Shown here piece by piece: positions 9,426 through 19,321 of a stretch of 19,519 nucleotides of DNA; positions within the stretch are counted from its first letter, which is position 1, and the number at the start of each line of letters is the position of its first letter. The translations under genes and the position numbers were made by a program. The notes beneath the pieces were generated by a model. That model was given only the letters and a program-made list of their open reading frames with translations, was not told where the DNA came from and did not search any database. This DNA comes from Clostridia bacterium (GTDB lineage: Bacteria > UBA6262 > WVXT01 > JAUXBS01): positions 1 through 19,519 of the forward strand of contig JAUXBS010000005.1 in the NCBI GenBank assembly GCA_030619245.1, in the 5' to 3' direction.

Positions 9426-9455
9426 TATTTACTCCATAATTAAATCTTGAATCAA

Positions 9456-9806
9456 TGGAGGCGAGCGGAATCGAACCGCTGTCCAGAAGCATTTCAGTAA
9501 TACGTCAACAAGCTTTGCTTATATTTTAATCTCATGCCAGCCATCTCCCATAAGCAGGATACGGAAAGCACCAGCCTTTAAAACTTCATCCCTTCCCCCA
9601 AGGCAAAGGAAGAAACCATTCCGTTTTTATTGCACTCATCCCCGCCCAACGGACAGGACAGTGAGAGCGTAATTCCTTAAAAGGAATTAAACTGCTAGCT
9701 TATTAAGCTGCACTTAAAATTTACTGTCGATTGATTAACGAGCCTTCGACAAACCTCGGCCTGCAGTACTACTTCCATAAACCCCTGTCGAAACCTGTGC
9801 GCCCCC
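9456..9806 (-). ncRNA. ssrA: tmRNA (ssrA) with an apparently degenerate tag
   Basis: This is the trans-translation RNA that rescues stalled ribosomes with SmpB. The 3' end holds a T-arm (AGCGG-TTCGATT-CCGCT) and acceptor strand CGCCTCC plus discriminator A. It pairs with the 5' GGGGGCG (9806-9800) over seven base pairs, including the G3-U70 pair read by alanyl-tRNA synthetase; CCA is not encoded. The conserved 5' block GGTTTCGACAGGG and H2 strand GCCGAGG are present. PK1 has TGTCGA (9751-9746) pairing with TCGACA (9730-9725). Thirteen bases further lies AAGT followed by GCA (9711-9709), the expected resume codon; the next codons are GCT TAA TAA. H5 forms around these stops (TGC AGCTT aat AAGCT a GCA). 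The encoded tag would be only Ala-Ala. The length of 351 nt is normal. smpB is immediately upstream. Confidence 0.93.
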
Positions 9807-9850
9807 CTTCCTGTGAATCCTCCTCCCCTCATGGGGGAAACACATTTTCC
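9806..9850. repeat. 45-bp direct repeat, copy 1 (abuts tmRNA 5' end)
   Basis: This 45-bp sequence recurs without mismatch at 9917-9961, in the same orientation and 111 bp away. It contains a CCCC-TCAT-GGGG hairpin. Its left end coincides with the first nucleotide of the mature tmRNA, so on the minus strand it forms the immediate 5' leader of ssrA. Confidence 0.9.
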
Positions 9851-9916: not shown

Positions 9917-9961
9917 CCTTCCTGTGAATCCTCCTCCCCTCATGGGGGAAACACATTTTCC
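9917..9961. repeat. 45-bp direct repeat, copy 2
   Basis: This is an exact second copy of the 45 bp at 9806-9850, placed 14 bp after the smpB stop. The 66 bp between the copies contains a duplicated TTCGCTCA octamer and no gene. The open frames crossing these repeats (9735-9956 and 9695-9886, minus strand) are products of the repeat and tmRNA sequence and are not called as genes. Confidence 0.9.
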
Positions 9962-9975
9962 TGCATACAAATAAT

Positions 9976-10422
9976 TTATCTTCTTTTCAAAACCCTTCTT
10001 ATTTCCCTGTCTGATTCACGCTTCTTGATGTCATCTCTTTTATCGCGCTTTCTTTTTCCTTTTACAAGCCCAAGGGAAACTTTTATCTTGCCATGGTTCA
10101 GGTATAACTGAAGAGGAACCAGGGTTAACCCTTTTTCCTGCACCTTGCCGGTTAACTTCCTTATTTCGCTTTTATGTAAAAGCAGTTTCCTTTTTCTTTC
10201 GGGATTGTAATCCTTGCACCTGGTTTTCTCATACAGGCTTATATGCACCTTCTGCAGGAAAACTTCACCGCTTTCTATGAGCGCATACCCATCCTTCAGT
10301 ACTGCCTTGCCGCCTCTTACAGATTTCACTTCATTACCTGTAAGGACTATCCCTGTTTCAAAAGACTCTGCTATATGATAATTGCGCTTTGCAGCCCTGT
10401 TATCAGCAAATACCTTGCCCAT
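9976..10422 (-). CDS. smpB: SsrA-binding protein SmpB
   Basis: This 148-residue RNA-binding protein delivers tmRNA to stalled ribosomes. Family motifs run along the length: FADNRAAKRNYHIAESFETGI, LTGNEVKSVRGGKAVLKDGYA, NPERKRKLLLHKSEI, YLNHGKIKVSLGL and KGKRKRDKRDDIKKRE, ending in the basic C-terminal tail REIRRVLKRR that reads the mRNA channel. The frame is open to a TTG at 10458, but that TTG is part of an excellent -35 box. ATG 10422 also matches the usual SmpB N-terminus, so 10422 is chosen. No Shine-Dalgarno sequence precedes it; the promoter geometry suggests a leaderless mRNA. ssrA lies 169 bp downstream on the same strand, the common arrangement. Confidence 0.96.
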   Translation of the reverse strand: MGKVFADNRAAKRNYHIAESFETGIVLTGNEVKSVRGGKAVLKDGYALIESGEVFLQKVHISLYEKTRCKDYNPERKRKLLLHKSEIRKLTGKVQEKGLTLVPLQLYLNHGKIKVSLGLVKGKRKRDKRDDIKKRESDREIRRVLKRR

Positions 10423-10429
10423 TTTTACA

Positions 10430-10458
10430 ATAATATCAAAATTTATAGTTATTTTCAA
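10430..10458 (-). promoter_or_regulatory. Sigma-70-type promoter of smpB (extended -10)
   Basis: On the minus strand TTGAAA (10458-10453), a 17-bp spacer and TATTAT (10435-10430) match the -35/-10 consensus closely, with TGA before the -10 giving an extended -10. The predicted start, about 7-8 nt on, falls at 10423-10422, which is the A of the smpB ATG. Confidence 0.7.
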
Positions 10459-13382: not shown

Positions 13383-16300
13383 TTACAGTGAAGTTCTCCC
13401 CTTTTTCCTGCATACTTGTGTATATTCGCAGAATTTACAGGCGCTTTCCGACTCCGCAGGCTTGAACTCCCGGTTTTTTACCTTCTTGATAATCCCCTTG
13501 ATTTTTTCCTCTATATCCTTTTCCTCATCACTGCTGATATCCAGGTCCACGAGTTCATTACTCCTCAGGAACCACAGGCTTAACTTCTTTACCGGATTAC
13601 AGCCAAGCAGTTTTTCCGCGCCCCATTTGTACACAGCCAGCTGGAATTTCTCCTTCTTTTTACTGCCTGTCTTGTAATCAATAATACGATAGCCGTCACC
13701 GGTAGCGTCTATCCTGTCTATGGTCCCCCTCACTTCCCATCCATCAATGAATAAACTGAACGGCTGTTCCAGGAGCACAACGTTTTCCGGCTTGTTGTTT
13801 TTATTGTTAATGAAGTTCTTCAGTAAATCTTTTGCTTCCCCGCCGTAGGCCTCCTCACTTTCCTTCCCGGTTTTACCGTAAGCCCCGGCAAGTTCACAAA
13901 ACCTGTCTTTTACCCTTTTATCATCCCATTTAATGTTTTCTTTTAAATCTGACATGTACTCTTCCAGTACCATATGAATTATCGAACCAAACGTGTAACC
14001 CTCCATTAACGGCCCTTCCCCCGGGGCAGCCTCTGCTTCAGTCTCAAACGGGAGGTTAAAAACATAACGGTATTTATACCTCAGGGGACAACGTTCATAC
14101 ATAACAAGTTCACTTACAGAAAAATGCCCCGGAGATACTCCCGGGAGAACCGGAGGCTTATAGGTTGTGAACAGATTTTCCTCAACCTGCCTTGCTGATA
14201 CCGGCTGCAACTTTTCTTCTTCCGGCTGCAGGTAATGCCGGCCCTTCCATTCCTCATCATCCTTCCTGAAACCCTTTCTCCTGTCAACGATTAAATCCAC
14301 AAATTCCGGCAATAATTTCTTGTCCTTATCAACAAACATCTCCAGGAACCTGCTCATCTTCCTGTTCCCCGCCAGGCTGCCGGAAAGTATCAATTTCCGC
14401 TCAGCCCTTGTCATTGCAACATAAAGCAGCCGCATTTCTTCCGGATTAACCTCACTGCCGCCCCTCCCCTTCCGGGTGTCTTTTTGTTTGATAACCTCTT
14501 CGGGGCTGTATGAATAAACCTCGCTCTTTCCGCCTGAAGGGAAAGCCCTGTCCCTTATATCCGCCACGAACACCACGGGGAATTCCAGCCCCTTTGCCTT
14601 GTGAATGCTCATTATATGAACTGCATTTTCCTCACTGAGCCTTGCCTCGCTTTCAACGGATTCCTGCCCTGTAACCTCTTTCAGGTACGCGATGAAATCA
14701 GCAAGCGTGGAAAATACATTCCTTTCCTCAAATTTCTGGACAAGGGCATAAAGTTTCTTAATATTAGCAAGGCTTCTCTTCCTTTCACCCGGAAGAAGCG
14801 AATGGCAGTAATGCAGGTAATTACTCTCTGTAATTACCCGGTAAACAAGGAGCGATAAACTGCTTGCCCTCTTCCTGAAAAGGAAATCATTGATGAATAA
14901 CCCGGCATCCTCAAGAACTGATTTTACATCACCCTCTATTTTTATTTCATCCAGCCCGGACAGGGCATCGAAAAGAGGAGAATGCCTCCTTAAAACCCTC
15001 TTCTCTTCCTCATCATATTCCTCTTTAATATTTAACACCGTCAATTCAGCAAGCGTGGAATTCTTTATCCTGTAAAGCGGCGAACGCAGTACCCTTACAA
15101 GTGACAGGTCATCAAAGGGATTGTTGATTACACTGAGGAGCGCCACTATGTCCCTGATTTCAGGCCTTTCGAAATAACCCCTCCCCCCGCTTGTAATAAA
15201 CGGTATGCCGTATTTCCGGAGAGCGTTTTCAAATATTGATACCGGGGTTTTGACGCTCCTTAACAGGATTGCGATTTCACTCAGCTTATCTACTTCTTCA
15301 TCACGGCGCAGCTCAATAATCCTCCTGGCAATGAACTCCGCTTCAGCCTCCCTTGTTTCTGCCGGGAAAATCTCGCAGCAGCCCCCTCCTCCCCTCTTTT
15401 TGGAATTTATTGGTTCATATTCCTTCATGGCCCGCCCGGACACCTTATTGACAACCTCAAGAACCTCGTTGCATGAACGGAAGTTTTCGGTGAGCCGGAT
15501 AACGACGCTGTTCTCACCGTCAAAGCTCTCCAGGTTTTCAGGTTTCGCCCCCCTGAACCCATAAATCGACTGTTTCACATCGCCCACGATGAAGTAATTA
15601 TCAGAAAACATCCTCAACAGTTTATGCTGCAGGGGAGTTGTATCCTGGTACTCATCAACGAGAACGTACCTGAACTGTTTCCTGTACTTTTCTTTTATTG
15701 CTTCTTTCTCAGTCAGCATTTTAAGAGTTTCCAGCAAAAGCCCCGAGAAGTTAAAAAGATTTTTGTCCTTCATCTCCTGCTCGTAAAGTGAATATATTTT
15801 ACTTATAAGCCTGCACAACTCCCTGTTTTCCTCTTTTGCTTTCTCCTGCATCAGCAGAAAGCCTCTCGATGAAATCGCATTGTTCCTCAACTGGATAATA
15901 TACCTGTACAGGTCCTCAATAAAACTGTCTATGCTTTTATCCACCATAACCTGCGGAAGCCCCTTATAATTGAACGTCCTCCCGCATACCCTGATAAACA
16001 GCAGTTTTTCCTCAACCTCATCAAGTATGCGGAACTCCGGGTTAATTCCCAGTTCAAGAGCATTCTCCCTTAAAATGCGGTTGCAGAAGGAATCAATGGT
16101 TGAAACATATAGTTTATTCATGAGAACCCTGCAGTTATCGCGTGATAACTTGTTGAATTCCGCCTCCAGGCGGCCGCGCATCTCTCCTGCCGCCTTGTTT
16201 GTAAAGGTCACAGCAAGGATGCTTTCCACGGCTCTGCCATCTTCCATCCCTTCCGCCTTCAGTGATGAAAATATTCTAAGGAACCTTTCAACAAGAACGG

Positions 16301-16391
16301 TAGTCTTTCCCGTCCCCGCGCCTGCCCTTACACAGACGATTCCCTCAAGTGTTTCTATGGCTCTTTTCTGTTCCCCGGTTATTTCCTTCAT
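13383..16391 (-). CDS. AddA-like UvrD-family helicase/RecB-type nuclease
   Basis: This 1002-residue protein is predicted to process double-strand DNA ends for recombination. The helicase core looks canonical: Q/motif I TGEQKRAIE and AGAGTGKT (about 23-30), motif Ia AVTFTNKAAGEMRGR, motif II VLVDEYQDTTPLQ (Asp246-Glu247), motif III VGDVKQSIYGFRGA, motif IV LTENFRS, motif V MSIHKAKGLEFPVVFV and motif VI LLYVAMTRAERKL. The C-terminal PD-(D/E)XK nuclease has GTIDRID (Asp892), IIDYKTG (Asp905, Lys907) and QLAVY. Fe-S-type cysteines are in YERCPLRYKYRY and CKFCEYTQVC. The frame opens 16 codons earlier, but ATG 16391 overlaps the upstream stop (ATGA) and begins right at the Q motif, so it is preferred. 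RecB-like identity is possible, but there is no RecC or RecD here. Confidence 0.88.
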   Translation of the reverse strand: MKEITGEQKRAIETLEGIVCVRAGAGTGKTTVLVERFLRIFSSLKAEGMEDGRAVESILAVTFTNKAAGEMRGRLEAEFNKLSRDNCRVLMNKLYVSTIDSFCNRILRENALELGINPEFRILDEVEEKLLFIRVCGRTFNYKGLPQVMVDKSIDSFIEDLYRYIIQLRNNAISSRGFLLMQEKAKEENRELCRLISKIYSLYEQEMKDKNLFNFSGLLLETLKMLTEKEAIKEKYRKQFRYVLVDEYQDTTPLQHKLLRMFSDNYFIVGDVKQSIYGFRGAKPENLESFDGENSVVIRLTENFRSCNEVLEVVNKVSGRAMKEYEPINSKKRGGGGCCEIFPAETREAEAEFIARRIIELRRDEEVDKLSEIAILLRSVKTPVSIFENALRKYGIPFITSGGRGYFERPEIRDIVALLSVINNPFDDLSLVRVLRSPLYRIKNSTLAELTVLNIKEEYDEEEKRVLRRHSPLFDALSGLDEIKIEGDVKSVLEDAGLFINDFLFRKRASSLSLLVYRVITESNYLHYCHSLLPGERKRSLANIKKLYALVQKFEERNVFSTLADFIAYLKEVTGQESVESEARLSEENAVHIMSIHKAKGLEFPVVFVADIRDRAFPSGGKSEVYSYSPEEVIKQKDTRKGRGGSEVNPEEMRLLYVAMTRAERKLILSGSLAGNRKMSRFLEMFVDKDKKLLPEFVDLIVDRRKGFRKDDEEWKGRHYLQPEEEKLQPVSARQVEENLFTTYKPPVLPGVSPGHFSVSELVMYERCPLRYKYRYVFNLPFETEAEAAPGEGPLMEGYTFGSIIHMVLEEYMSDLKENIKWDDKRVKDRFCELAGAYGKTGKESEEAYGGEAKDLLKNFINNKNNKPENVVLLEQPFSLFIDGWEVRGTIDRIDATGDGYRIIDYKTGSKKKEKFQLAVYKWGAEKLLGCNPVKKLSLWFLRSNELVDLDISSDEEKDIEEKIKGIIKKVKNREFKPAESESACKFCEYTQVCRKKGRTSL
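13409..13440. repeat. Parent copy of the duplicated addA 3' segment
   Basis: This segment lies inside the addA coding sequence and encodes CKFCEYTQVC. It is matched at 10695-10727 (28 of 32 aligned positions). The two copies are in the same orientation and flank the phosphatase gene. Confidence 0.65.
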
Positions 16392-19321
16392 TGTTCCCCA
16401 TCGCAAAGGAATTTCCAATCGCACCTCTTGCATTCCCATTTTTCCCGGGCCTTCTGCGGGTAACTGCCCCTGCGGATTTCCTTAACAGCCTCCCTTATGC
16501 GGCCCGCGGCCTTTTTAAGCGCCTCCGTGCTTGATATTGATTCCCTGAACTTGTATTCCTCCCCGAGTATTACTTCTGCCTTTATCCTTGCCCTGTCCCT
16601 GTCCAGGTCCTTGCGCAGCCAGTAAATGGAAAGCTTTCCCACATTTATTTTAAGGCCCTCCCTGGCCGCAAAATAATAAATGGGAAGCTGATAATTCTCC
16701 CCATCCCTCATCATTCTGCACAGTTTAAACTCCATATCAGCGCCCTTGCCCGTCTTATAATCAATGACTTCATAAGCGCCGTCGTCCAACCGGTCTATCC
16801 TGTCAATCCTGCCTGTAAATACACTCCCGTCACATTCCCACCTGAAAGGTTTTTCACATGCCTCAACCTTAAATGAATTTTTACTGTTTGCCGCAACATC
16901 CAGGTATCTTGCAAATACCCGTTCAGCAAGGCTCCTGTAAACTTCTCTTTCAAAAACAGTATCAAACTCCATGCTCTCAGAAAACCCCTTCCTGATTTCC
17001 TTTCCTATATATTCCCTGGCTTTCTCCTCCTTCATCAATTCCGCCCGGTTATACTTCTCATGGAATCCCGCGAGTATCCCGTGAACAACATGCCCAAACG
17101 CCATCTGTGGTTTATGGGGCAGCCAGATATGTATTAATGAAGTAAAGAAGAACTTTGCCGGGCACCGGCCATGTGATTCAAGTTTGCTTGCGGAAAATGT
17201 GAAACCCTCCGGTAACTTTACCCTGTCACAGAGCGCACCGGTGGAATACCGGTTTCTTACCCTTCCCAATGCTTCGTATTTCTTCCGGAATCTTTTCTTC
17301 AAAATAGACTCAAGCTCATTATTATCCGTCCTTACCCAGGCGCCTGCCAGGTCATCAGCAGTCAGTATGCCGCTCTCCTCTTCAACCCCGAGCACTGACG
17401 GCACATCAAACAACTTGAAACCGGTCCCGGAATTAATAACCTCCTCCACGTATGAAGACCTGCGTATTTCCTCCCCGCCTTCACCGCCTTCCGCGAAAGT
17501 AAGGAACAGTTTTTCATTTGCGCGGCTGCAGGCAAGCCTGAATATCCTTTTTTCTTCATTTATATGGGAAAGCGTGTCTATAACAGGTTCAAGCTTTAAT
17601 CCTTTTTTCTCTTCATTACTTAAAAGGCTTGATACCGGCAGGTCCCTTGGGAACCTGCCTTCCACCACTCCGGTTACAAACACCACGGGAAAAAACCTTC
17701 CCCTGGAATGCTGGACGGTCATTATTTTTACGGTATCCTCTCCGGGCTCAAAATACACCGTTTCGTCCCTCCCGTAAGAAGCTAGTATTTCATCAATATA
17801 GCTCATGAAATCAGAAAAAGAAGAACGCCCCTCTACCCTCCGGAAACTTTCAACTATTTTTATAAAATAATTCAGGTTCCTTGCAATCTTGCTGTTTTCA
17901 CTCCCCTCCCGGATGTACCCGAATTCCATGAACACCCTGTAGAGCAGTTTCTCAATGGGTAATTGTTTTAAAGACTCCCGTAACTCAGCCATTATCCCGC
18001 CAAGCATTTCAAGGGACCCAACGGTCTTTTTACTTACCCTGTTTTTCAAATCATCCCTGAGGGGAGGTTCAAGAGCGTCAACCAGGGAAATTCTCTTCCT
18101 TTCAGCGAATGAAATAAGCCGTTCCACTTCAGGGGGGTCTATTCTTAACCCCGGAGCGCAAAGGAGCCGCACGACATTATCATCGGCTGATTCACTTTCC
18201 CCCCGGATAAGTTTAAGGATGGCAATAATCTGTATTATTTCAGGTTGTTTGAAGAAGGCAATGCCTCCCGTAACCGAATACGGAAGCTCATAAATCTTCA
18301 TTGCTTCCTCAATATTCCTTACATCCCTTGACATACCACGGACCAAAATCGCTATATCACCGTAATGATACTGCTTCCTTGTAAGTTTATACGCCTGCCG
18401 GGCAACAAACAGCGCTTCCTCGTTGTTCCCTGAACATCTTATCACCTTTTTGCCGGGGTTGCGCCTTATCTCATCCGACAGTTCAATTTGTACCGGATTG
18501 AAAGCATTAATAAATGCGGTTTTAATCTTACCCGGCATTGCCCCGCGGAACATGAACACCCCTTCATCCTCAGCGCCGCTTACCAGGACTTTCCTGCCCC
18601 CCTCCGCGAGCAGTGAAAAGAGCCGGTACTGATTGAAGTCTATATTCTGATAATCATCTAACAGAAATATCTTAAACCTGCCCCTGTACGCTTCCAGCAC
18701 TTCCGGATGCTCGGAAAAAAGTTGTATGGTATTGAGCACCAGGTCCCTGAAATCCATGAAGTTGCCTTTTCTAAGGTATTCATTGTAACTCTTATAAATC
18801 ATTGCCAGGTCGGAATATTTTGGTTTGCCCTTATCAGGAAGAATGCTTTGATTGTTCAACTTAAGCAGGTCTATAAAATCAACTACTTCATTGATAAACC
18901 CTTCTGTGCTTTTCACGCTCTCATAGTATTTCAAGTCCAGGCCGGCAGTAACCTTCTTTAACACGAGTTTTTCTTCAAGCCCTTCTATTACATGGAAATT
19001 GGGATATATTCCCTTGATATCATTGTAATGCTTGCGTAATATTTTCTTTGAAAAAGCCGTAAAATTACTCAACCATAGTTCCCTGTACCCTTTACCCAGC
19101 AAAGGGCTCAAGGATGTTCTCAAATCCTCTTCATGCTCCGTAAAACACAACGCCTCCTCCGGCTTAACTTCACCCGTAGAAAAACAATACTGCAGGGTTC
19201 TTACCAACACCTCTGTCTTACCGCTGCCGGCAGGCCCGGATACAAGAACAGCCCCGTCCCCTGAGGTAACCGCCTTATGCTGCTCTCCTGTTAAATTCTT
19301 CAGTATATTATCTTTGGTCAT
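16388..19321 (-). CDS. AddB/AdnA-like UvrD-type helicase-nuclease with altered motor motifs
   Basis: This 977-residue protein is the first gene of the operon. The N-terminal UvrD-like motor has LTGEQHKAV and Walker A GPAGSGKT (29-36). Other motor motifs deviate: motif II is LLDDYQNIDF (Asp222-Asp223 in place of Asp-Glu), motif III VSGAEDEGVFMFRGA, motif V QHSRGRFFPVVFV, and motif VI ACSRANEKLF. Its ATPase may therefore be weak or structural. The C-terminal RecB-type nuclease looks intact: GRIDRIDRLDDGAYEVIDYK and the downstream NYQLPIYYFA. Fe-S cysteines are in HGRCPAKFFFTS and CKRCDWKFLC (964, 967, 973). Partner-gene position and nuclease/Fe-S layout match AddB; retention of helicase motifs is closer to the mycobacterial AdnA type. 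No Shine-Dalgarno sequence is seen before ATG 19321. Confidence 0.82.
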   Translation of the reverse strand: MTKDNILKNLTGEQHKAVTSGDGAVLVSGPAGSGKTEVLVRTLQYCFSTGEVKPEEALCFTEHEEDLRTSLSPLLGKGYRELWLSNFTAFSKKILRKHYNDIKGIYPNFHVIEGLEEKLVLKKVTAGLDLKYYESVKSTEGFINEVVDFIDLLKLNNQSILPDKGKPKYSDLAMIYKSYNEYLRKGNFMDFRDLVLNTIQLFSEHPEVLEAYRGRFKIFLLDDYQNIDFNQYRLFSLLAEGGRKVLVSGAEDEGVFMFRGAMPGKIKTAFINAFNPVQIELSDEIRRNPGKKVIRCSGNNEEALFVARQAYKLTRKQYHYGDIAILVRGMSRDVRNIEEAMKIYELPYSVTGGIAFFKQPEIIQIIAILKLIRGESESADDNVVRLLCAPGLRIDPPEVERLISFAERKRISLVDALEPPLRDDLKNRVSKKTVGSLEMLGGIMAELRESLKQLPIEKLLYRVFMEFGYIREGSENSKIARNLNYFIKIVESFRRVEGRSSFSDFMSYIDEILASYGRDETVYFEPGEDTVKIMTVQHSRGRFFPVVFVTGVVEGRFPRDLPVSSLLSNEEKKGLKLEPVIDTLSHINEEKRIFRLACSRANEKLFLTFAEGGEGGEEIRRSSYVEEVINSGTGFKLFDVPSVLGVEEESGILTADDLAGAWVRTDNNELESILKKRFRKKYEALGRVRNRYSTGALCDRVKLPEGFTFSASKLESHGRCPAKFFFTSLIHIWLPHKPQMAFGHVVHGILAGFHEKYNRAELMKEEKAREYIGKEIRKGFSESMEFDTVFEREVYRSLAERVFARYLDVAANSKNSFKVEACEKPFRWECDGSVFTGRIDRIDRLDDGAYEVIDYKTGKGADMEFKLCRMMRDGENYQLPIYYFAAREGLKINVGKLSIYWLRKDLDRDRARIKAEVILGEEYKFRESISSTEALKKAAGRIREAVKEIRRGSYPQKAREKWECKRCDWKFLCDGEQ

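What the first reader, a model, noticed from the sequence alone, without database searches (positions are those of the whole stretch)
9687..9730. tmRNA whose tag reading frame appears reduced to Ala-Ala-stop
The tRNA-like domain, PK1 (TGTCGA/TCGACA) and H5 are recognisable. As I recall the Thermotoga tmRNA, PK1 is followed by 13 bases ending AAGT and then the GCN resume codon; here the same 13-base spacing and AAGT lead to GCA at 9711, with A at -4. The next codons are GCT TAA TAA, with the stops in the H5 loop where tmRNA stops normally sit. The tag would be Ala-Ala after the Ala carried by the tmRNA, giving an Ala-Ala-Ala tail in place of a tag of roughly 8-35 residues. That could mean rescue with a minimal alanine degron (compare RqcH alanine tails, known to be degradable by ClpXP), rescue without real tagging, or a deletion between two GCA codons in this strain or assembly. 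Alternative frames: GTG at 9713 gives VQLNKLAV-stop, an unusual resume codon but plausible length and hydrophobic end; a third frame ends in CSLIS and lacks a typical degron.
Basis: partly seen in the sequence, partly recalled or inferred. Interest (0 to 1): 0.78.

Follow-up and report, generated by a model that had tools for sequence, protein, structure and literature searches.

The report
tmRNA encoding an Ala-Ala tag
This bacterial ribosome-rescue RNA appears to encode a tag of only two alanines instead of the usual ten or so residues; such minimal tags have been reported before, but this genus looks like a separate lineage that evolved one beside close relatives with normal tags.

Summary
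Window 9453-9806 (-) is a full standard-form tmRNA (RF00023, 166 bits). Its resume site reads GCA GCT TAA TAA (9711-9700), an Ala-Ala tag. An assembly error is very unlikely: the other held species of the genus has the same tag region although its tmRNA differs at 38 of 354 bases. Three sister-family genomes have normal tags (ADTNKLALAA, ADTTKLALAA, ADTKLALAA) after the same TAAGT|GC context. The short tag therefore looks derived: a two-base change of spacing puts a latent TAATAA in frame; no tag was cut out. A second, unnamed phylum has the same design in 35 of 35 tmRNAs read. The kind is in print: PMC11915505 reports 25 tmRNAs with Ala-Ala tags, especially in Fermentibacterota. Best reading: ordinary SmpB-tmRNA rescue leaving an Ala-Ala-Ala C-terminus. 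Ala-Ala-COO- is the part of the E. coli tag most important for ClpXP (PMC7652416), and five of five full ClpX proteins of the phylum keep the contact motifs. Degradation itself is inferred. Main frame rival: a GTG resume codon giving VQLNKLAV.

The parts
9453..9806 (-). tmRNA (ssrA) gene, standard form; tRNA-like ends with a G3-U pair in the acceptor stem; CCA not encoded
   Evidence: RF00023 166.1 bits, cut-off 47; ARAGORN 9456-9806; acceptor letters printed
9746..9751 (-). PK1 5' arm TGTCGA
   Evidence: sequence; identical in five tmRNAs of the phylum
9725..9730 (-). PK1 3' arm TCGACA
   Evidence: sequence; identical in five tmRNAs of the phylum
9712..9716 (-). TAAGT, frame-setting context with A at -4
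   Evidence: shared by all five tmRNAs of the phylum; role of this A from PMC2481249
9700..9711 (-). Tag frame GCA GCT TAA TAA: Ala-Ala, then two stops
   Evidence: identical in G001
9694..9711 (-). Short predicted hairpin holding resume codon, Ala codon and stops
   Evidence: predicted folds
9670..9689 (-). Helix at the H5 position, no tag stop in its loop; one double and one single compatible change against G001
9690..9713 (-). Rival frame GTG...GTT, VQLNKLAV (stop TAA at 9689-9687)
   Evidence: open in both species of the genus
9976..10458 (-). smpB, directly upstream of the tmRNA; full length with basic C-terminal tail (ORF from TTG 10458; an ATG at 10422 is a likelier start)
   Evidence: NF003843 186.8 bits, TIGR00086 172.1 bits; ORF

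Best explanation
This is a working SmpB-dependent tmRNA whose tag frame is two codons, Ala-Ala, and whose product is still a proteolysis signal. Alanyl-tmRNA with SmpB enters the stalled ribosome and takes over the chain (inferred from conserved parts: tRNA-like domain with G3-U pair, intact smpB next to it). The ribosome resumes four bases after the conserved A, at GCA, adds two alanines and is released at TAATAA (inferred from the shared TAAGT context). The chain then ends Ala-Ala-Ala-COO-, which ClpXP most likely still reads, since the last two alanines are the main part of the E. coli tag for ClpX (inferred). The short tag probably arose in this genus by a small change of spacing that brought a latent TAATAA into frame.
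For: Identical tag region in the other held species of the genus. Between the two tmRNAs 17 of 106 predicted pairs changed, 3 on both sides, 14 on one side, 0 broken. Same TAAGT|GC context as three sister-family tmRNAs with normal tags. A at -4 in 48 of 48 tmRNAs read outside the phylum. Same Ala-Ala-stop in 35 of 35 tmRNAs read from a second phylum. smpB adjacent and full length. ClpP in 6 of 6 and ClpX over cut-off in 5 of 6 genomes of the phylum; GYVG, TRDV and RKH motifs in 5 of 5 full ClpX. [quoted passage not shown] PMC2584231: H. pylori tmRNA with stops right after the resume codon still supports viability. PMC11915505 reports natural Ala-Ala tags.
Against: No peptide, expression or degradation data. 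The rival GTG frame is open in both species and related to the sister family's tag. Only two species of the genus were available, and the unchanged run at the tag is not significant by itself (permutation P 0.116). In H. pylori the cut tag cost stress tolerance and competence. The -4 count used a script that favoured A at -4.
Confidence: 0.5

Rival explanations
1. The tag is Ala-Ala as above, but it only lets the ribosome terminate; the Ala-Ala-Ala end is not a useful degron. tmRNA here does rescue without marking proteins for destruction.
For: H. pylori lives with a tag restricted to two residues but loses stress tolerance and competence (PMC2584231). Mitochondrial tmRNAs appear to lack a tag frame yet are kept (PMC11915505).
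Against: Both codons are Ala in both lineages, though any sense codons would serve for rescue alone. Ala-Ala-COO- is what ClpX reads most in E. coli and the contact motifs are kept.
Confidence: 0.3
2. The ribosome resumes two bases earlier, at GTG (9713), and makes VQLNKLAV, a tag of normal length with a hydrophobic end; the Ala-Ala-stop is a coincidence.
For: Open in both species of the genus, with a stop kept as TAA or TAG; letters related to the sister family's ...NKLA...; H. pylori resumes at GUA, a Val codon.
Against: Needs U at -4: in E. coli a pyrimidine there left no measurable activity (PMC2481249), and 48 of 48 outside tmRNAs have A. The TAAGT|GC context is unchanged from the sister family. 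The TAA-to-TAG change lies in the H5-position helix and is explained by pairing. None of the 48 outside tags begins with a Val codon as read here.
Confidence: 0.13
3. A +1 frameshift at GCT TAA makes AANKLAV, so that the stop is leaky and a longer tag is sometimes added.
For: After GCT the +1 frame reads AAT AAG CTA GCA GTT stop, matching the sister family's NKLA (sequence).
Against: Two stops in a row; no slippery run that I recognise; in the second phylum no frame but Ala-Ala is shared (31 of 31 unique segments Ala-Ala).
Confidence: 0.03
4. Assembly error or decayed tmRNA.
For: Draft genome, 76% complete, 288 contigs.
Against: Identical tag region in an independent assembly of another species; 0 of 17 changed pairs broken; smpB intact.
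Confidence: 0.02

Closest known systems
Two-residue (Ala-Ala) tmRNA tags, 25 sequences, e.g. Fermentibacter daniensis (PMC11915505, 2025; passages and part 1 of 2 of the Results)
   Same: Standard-form tmRNA, tag Ala-Ala then stop.
   Different: Reported as especially common in Fermentibacterota. Three of the six genomes of the window's phylum have records labelled Clostridia bacterium; whether this genus is among the 25 could not be checked.
H. pylori SsrA-STOP mutant (PMC2584231, abstract and passages)
   Same: Stops soon after the resume codon; rescue still works.
   Different: Engineered; two residues added in all by the paper's count, so one codon read, against three here; natural tag is longer.
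RqcH alanine tails (named in PMC7652416 and in search listings)
   Same: C-terminal alanines that target chains to ClpXP.
   Different: Made by RqcH without tmRNA; RqcH (PF05833) is over cut-off in 0 of 6 genomes of this phylum.
Tag-less tmRNAs of mitochondria and some plastids (PMC11915505 passage)
   Same: Reduced coding part.
   Different: Those appear to have no tag frame; here resume site, two codons and stops are present.

Membership tests
tmRNA (RF00023) | Full match to the family model | tested here: met
   166.1 bits against 47, model positions 1-374
tmRNA (RF00023) | Alanine-type acceptor stem with G3-U pair | tested here: met
   GGGGGCG against CGCCUCC (letters)
tmRNA (RF00023) | SmpB partner | tested here: met
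   adjacent smpB over both curated cut-offs
tmRNA (RF00023) | A four bases before the resume codon | tested here: met
   TAAGT before GCA
tmRNA with usual tag | Tag of several residues (mode 10 in PMC11915505) | tested here: not met
   two codons from GCA; 48 outside tmRNAs read have 6 or more (four corrected by hand)
Ala-Ala-tag tmRNA (PMC11915505) | Tag frame Ala-Ala then stop | tested here: met
   GCA GCT TAA TAA; same in G001
Ala-Ala-tag tmRNA (PMC11915505) | Tag added to proteins in the cell | not testable with these tools
   needs peptide or reporter data
ClpXP degron | Substrates ending Ala-Ala-Ala are degraded | not testable with these tools
   only the presence of ClpX/ClpP and contact motifs was tested

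The most novel reading that the evidence does not exclude
Ala-Ala tags evolved at least twice, in this genus and in another phylum, each time with the stop codon placed inside the hairpin that holds the resume codon. The result is a hard-wired alanine tail, read by ClpXP, that does the work of a full ssrA tag. The rest of the usual tag would then be dispensable in nature.
Probability: 0.4. Interest if true: 0.68.

Novelty: new member of a known kind. Interest (0 to 1): 0.5.

Why it matters
The ssrA tag is usually described as a degron of about ten residues. A tag pared to Ala-Ala, present in both held species of a genus and in 35 of 35 tmRNAs read from another phylum, makes it testable whether Ala-Ala-Ala alone suffices for protein quality control. 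The sister family with normal tags gives a natural before-and-after pair.

Tried and rejected
Deletion between two GCA codons: rejected, the tmRNA is not shorter than its relative's (354 against 351 bases, G003). ARAGORN's tag: rejected. The unchanged run at the tag as evidence by itself: not significant, P 0.116. Absence of RqcH as the cause: PF05833 is over cut-off in 0 of 6 genomes of the phylum, with weak below-cut-off matches in the four sister-family genomes; three of those have normal tags and the fourth (G004) no tmRNA found, so absence does not track the short tag. ArfB as a back-up: small proteins with an RF-1 domain were found in both families, but the three tested (G001, G000, G004) stay below the ArfB cut-off; left open. 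Alignment A2 mixed orientations and was not used.

Limits of the pattern searches. Pattern 1 matched 3 of 386 genomes; read backwards as a control it matched 7 times, so a bare match means little. G000 and G001 are tmRNAs; G140 was judged a chance match from its letters. Pattern 1 would catch about half of ordinary tmRNAs (24 of 48; 23 of 48 at the true resume site). Pattern 2 matched 38 places in 37 of 386 genomes, with about 40 control matches; its own sensitivity was not computed, two near variants give 30 and 35 of 48. Of the 38 places, 15 loci were printed: 3 with Ala-Ala (G107, G244, G372), 12 normal tags matched at their end. G173 and G311 look like tmRNAs and were judged normal from match span only; G000 and G001 are the known ones; the other 19 do not look like tmRNAs in the letters shown. 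So 5 of 386 genomes with an Ala-Ala tag is a lower bound.

Full report
WHAT IS THERE. The window's minus strand carries smpB (9976-10458) and then a tmRNA gene (9453-9806). The tmRNA matches the whole RF00023 model with 166.1 bits against a cut-off of 47 and is the only match over cut-off in the held genome, a 1.5-Mb draft in 288 contigs, 76% complete. The PK1 arm ends at 9725; 13 bases ending TAAGT follow; then GCA GCT TAA TAA at 9711-9700. Read from GCA the tag is Ala-Ala. The other frames give VQLNKLAV* from GTG and CSLIS* from TGC. ARAGORN reports a different tag far downstream, which I take as a mis-call.

NOT AN ASSEMBLY FAULT. The phylum has six held genomes. The one other genome of the genus, G001 (98% complete), has the identical run GCAGCTTAATAAGCTAGCAGTTTA. 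The two tmRNAs of the genus differ at 38 of 354 bases, none of them at positions 89-119. That run is not significant by itself (permutation P 0.116). The changes elsewhere respect pairing: of 106 predicted pairs 17 changed, 3 on both sides, 14 on one side, 0 broken. Both genes look functional.

THE SISTER FAMILY HAS NORMAL TAGS. G003, G002 and G005 of the same order carry ADTNKLALAA, ADTTKLALAA and ADTKLALAA, each after TAAGT|GCT; in the fourth, G004 (83% complete), no tmRNA over cut-off and no SmpB was found. PK1 and the resume codon are 12, 12 and 13 bases apart there (G002, G003, G005) and 13 here. The run AATAAG(C/T)TAGCA of this genus matches AATAAGTTAGCA of G003 but lies two bases closer to the resume codon. 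In G003 the letters TAATAA are already present, out of frame. The simplest history is a small change of spacing that brought TAATAA into frame (inference). No block was lost; the tmRNA is 354 bases against 351 in G003.

WHICH FRAME. The rival frame GTG CAG CTT AAT AAG CTA GCA GTT stop keeps the sister family's NKLA and is open in both species. A Val resume codon is known: GUA in H. pylori (PMC2584231, passages). But it needs U at -4. In E. coli every change of that A reduced activity greatly and C or U left none measurable; the authors see it as the mark for a ruler of four bases (PMC2481249, passages). Of 55 genomes with a tmRNA over cut-off, I read 53 (G044 and G052 were not fetched): 5 in this phylum and 48 outside. 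In those 48, A stands at -4 in 48, and the shortest tag is 6 residues (ANTLVA, G043). The script miscalled four of the 48 (G030, G038, G039, G058), which I corrected by hand; G058's start is uncertain. The scoring favoured A at -4, so this count is not fully independent. I give the GTG reading 0.13.

A SECOND LINEAGE. Two pattern searches over 386 genomes, which from their order appear to be spread over many phyla, found Ala-Ala-stop tmRNAs in G000 and G001 and then also in G107, G244 and G372. Reversed control patterns matched about as often as the real ones, so the five were accepted only on reading them as tmRNAs. G107's phylum has 42 held genomes, 34 of them with a tmRNA over cut-off. I read 35 tmRNAs from those 34 genomes (G407 has two): 34 by the script, and G419, which that script read in the wrong orientation. 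All 35 have GCC GC[A/C/G] TAA with A at -4 (the search expression required that A). In 31 unique segments of the 34, frame 0 is Ala-Ala in 31, and the other two frames share no common tag. PMC11915505 reports 25 sequences with 2-residue Ala-Ala tags, especially common among the Fermentibacterota (passage). The window's tmRNA shares its PK1 and neighbouring letters with its sister family, so its short tag most likely arose separately.

SHARED ANATOMY. In this genus the resume codon, Ala codon and stops lie in a short predicted hairpin (GCAGCUU-AAU-AAGCUAGC), followed by a regular helix at the H5 position with no tag stop in its loop. Of ten segments of the other phylum folded, eight form a small hairpin over the same letters with a helix behind it; G415 and G408 fold differently as single sequences. 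In the sister family the first hairpin holds the start of the tag, and the stop lies in the loop of the next. Placing the stop in the resume hairpin thus seems to free H5 from coding (inference).

HOW IT WORKS. Inferred: SmpB-tmRNA enters, adds its alanine, the ribosome reads GCA GCT, stops at TAATAA, and the chain ends Ala-Ala-Ala. H. pylori with stops right after the resume codon is viable, so one round of translation suffices for rescue, but a mutant with the cut tag loses stress tolerance and competence (PMC2584231, abstract and passages). The terminal Ala-Ala-COO- is the most important element of the E. coli tag for ClpXP, with critical contacts by Y153, V154, T199, V202, R228 and H230 (PMC7652416, passages). 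ClpP was found in 6 of 6 genomes of the phylum and ClpX over cut-off in 5 of 6 (G002 partial). In the five full ClpX proteins the GYVG, TRDV and RKH motifs are present in 5 of 5 (fitting them to the E. coli numbers is my recall). RqcH (PF05833) is over cut-off in 0 of 6 genomes. Degradation of Ala-Ala-Ala ends is plausible but not shown.

NOVELTY. The kind is in print, in a short passage of PMC11915505. The listings of my searches (most showed only the top part of the papers found) held no other paper that I recognised as reporting natural Ala-Ala tags. What this adds: a lineage with the short tag beside normal-tag relatives, a likely route of origin, its presence in 35 of 35 tmRNAs read of another phylum, and the two-hairpin layout.

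Noticed in passing
window 9806-9850 and 9917-9961: An exact 45-base direct repeat between smpB and the tmRNA; the first copy touches the tmRNA 5' end. Its 40-base core occurs only these two times in the held genome with up to 3 mismatches.
   Followed up: partly
L042 1825-2073; L043 near 1820: The sister-family tmRNA of G002 carries a group I intron in the T-loop region (RF00028, 51.8 bits against 50); G005's tmRNA match breaks off at the same place but no intron reached cut-off there.
   Followed up: partly
window 9453-9456: CCA is not encoded in this genus's tmRNA (CTCCATTG, CTCCATTA in G001), while G003 of the sister family encodes CCACCA.
   Followed up: no
L095 78-485 (-), L097 1450-1854, L094 1477-1809: Small single-domain GGQ proteins of the release-factor kind, below the ArfB and PrfH cut-offs; possible other rescue factors.
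   Followed up: partly
L179 and L193: Genome G407 (listed contamination 4) holds two different tmRNA genes, both with Ala-Ala tags; may be mixed bins.
   Followed up: no
window 13383-19321 (-): Two adjacent UvrD-type helicases, each with a PD-(D/E)XK nuclease domain, look like an AddA/AddB-type pair (my reading).
   Followed up: no
window 9456-9806 (-): ARAGORN calls the tag of this tmRNA as AGAFRILLMGDGWHEIKI, which shows that automatic tag calls can miss very short tags.
   Followed up: yes
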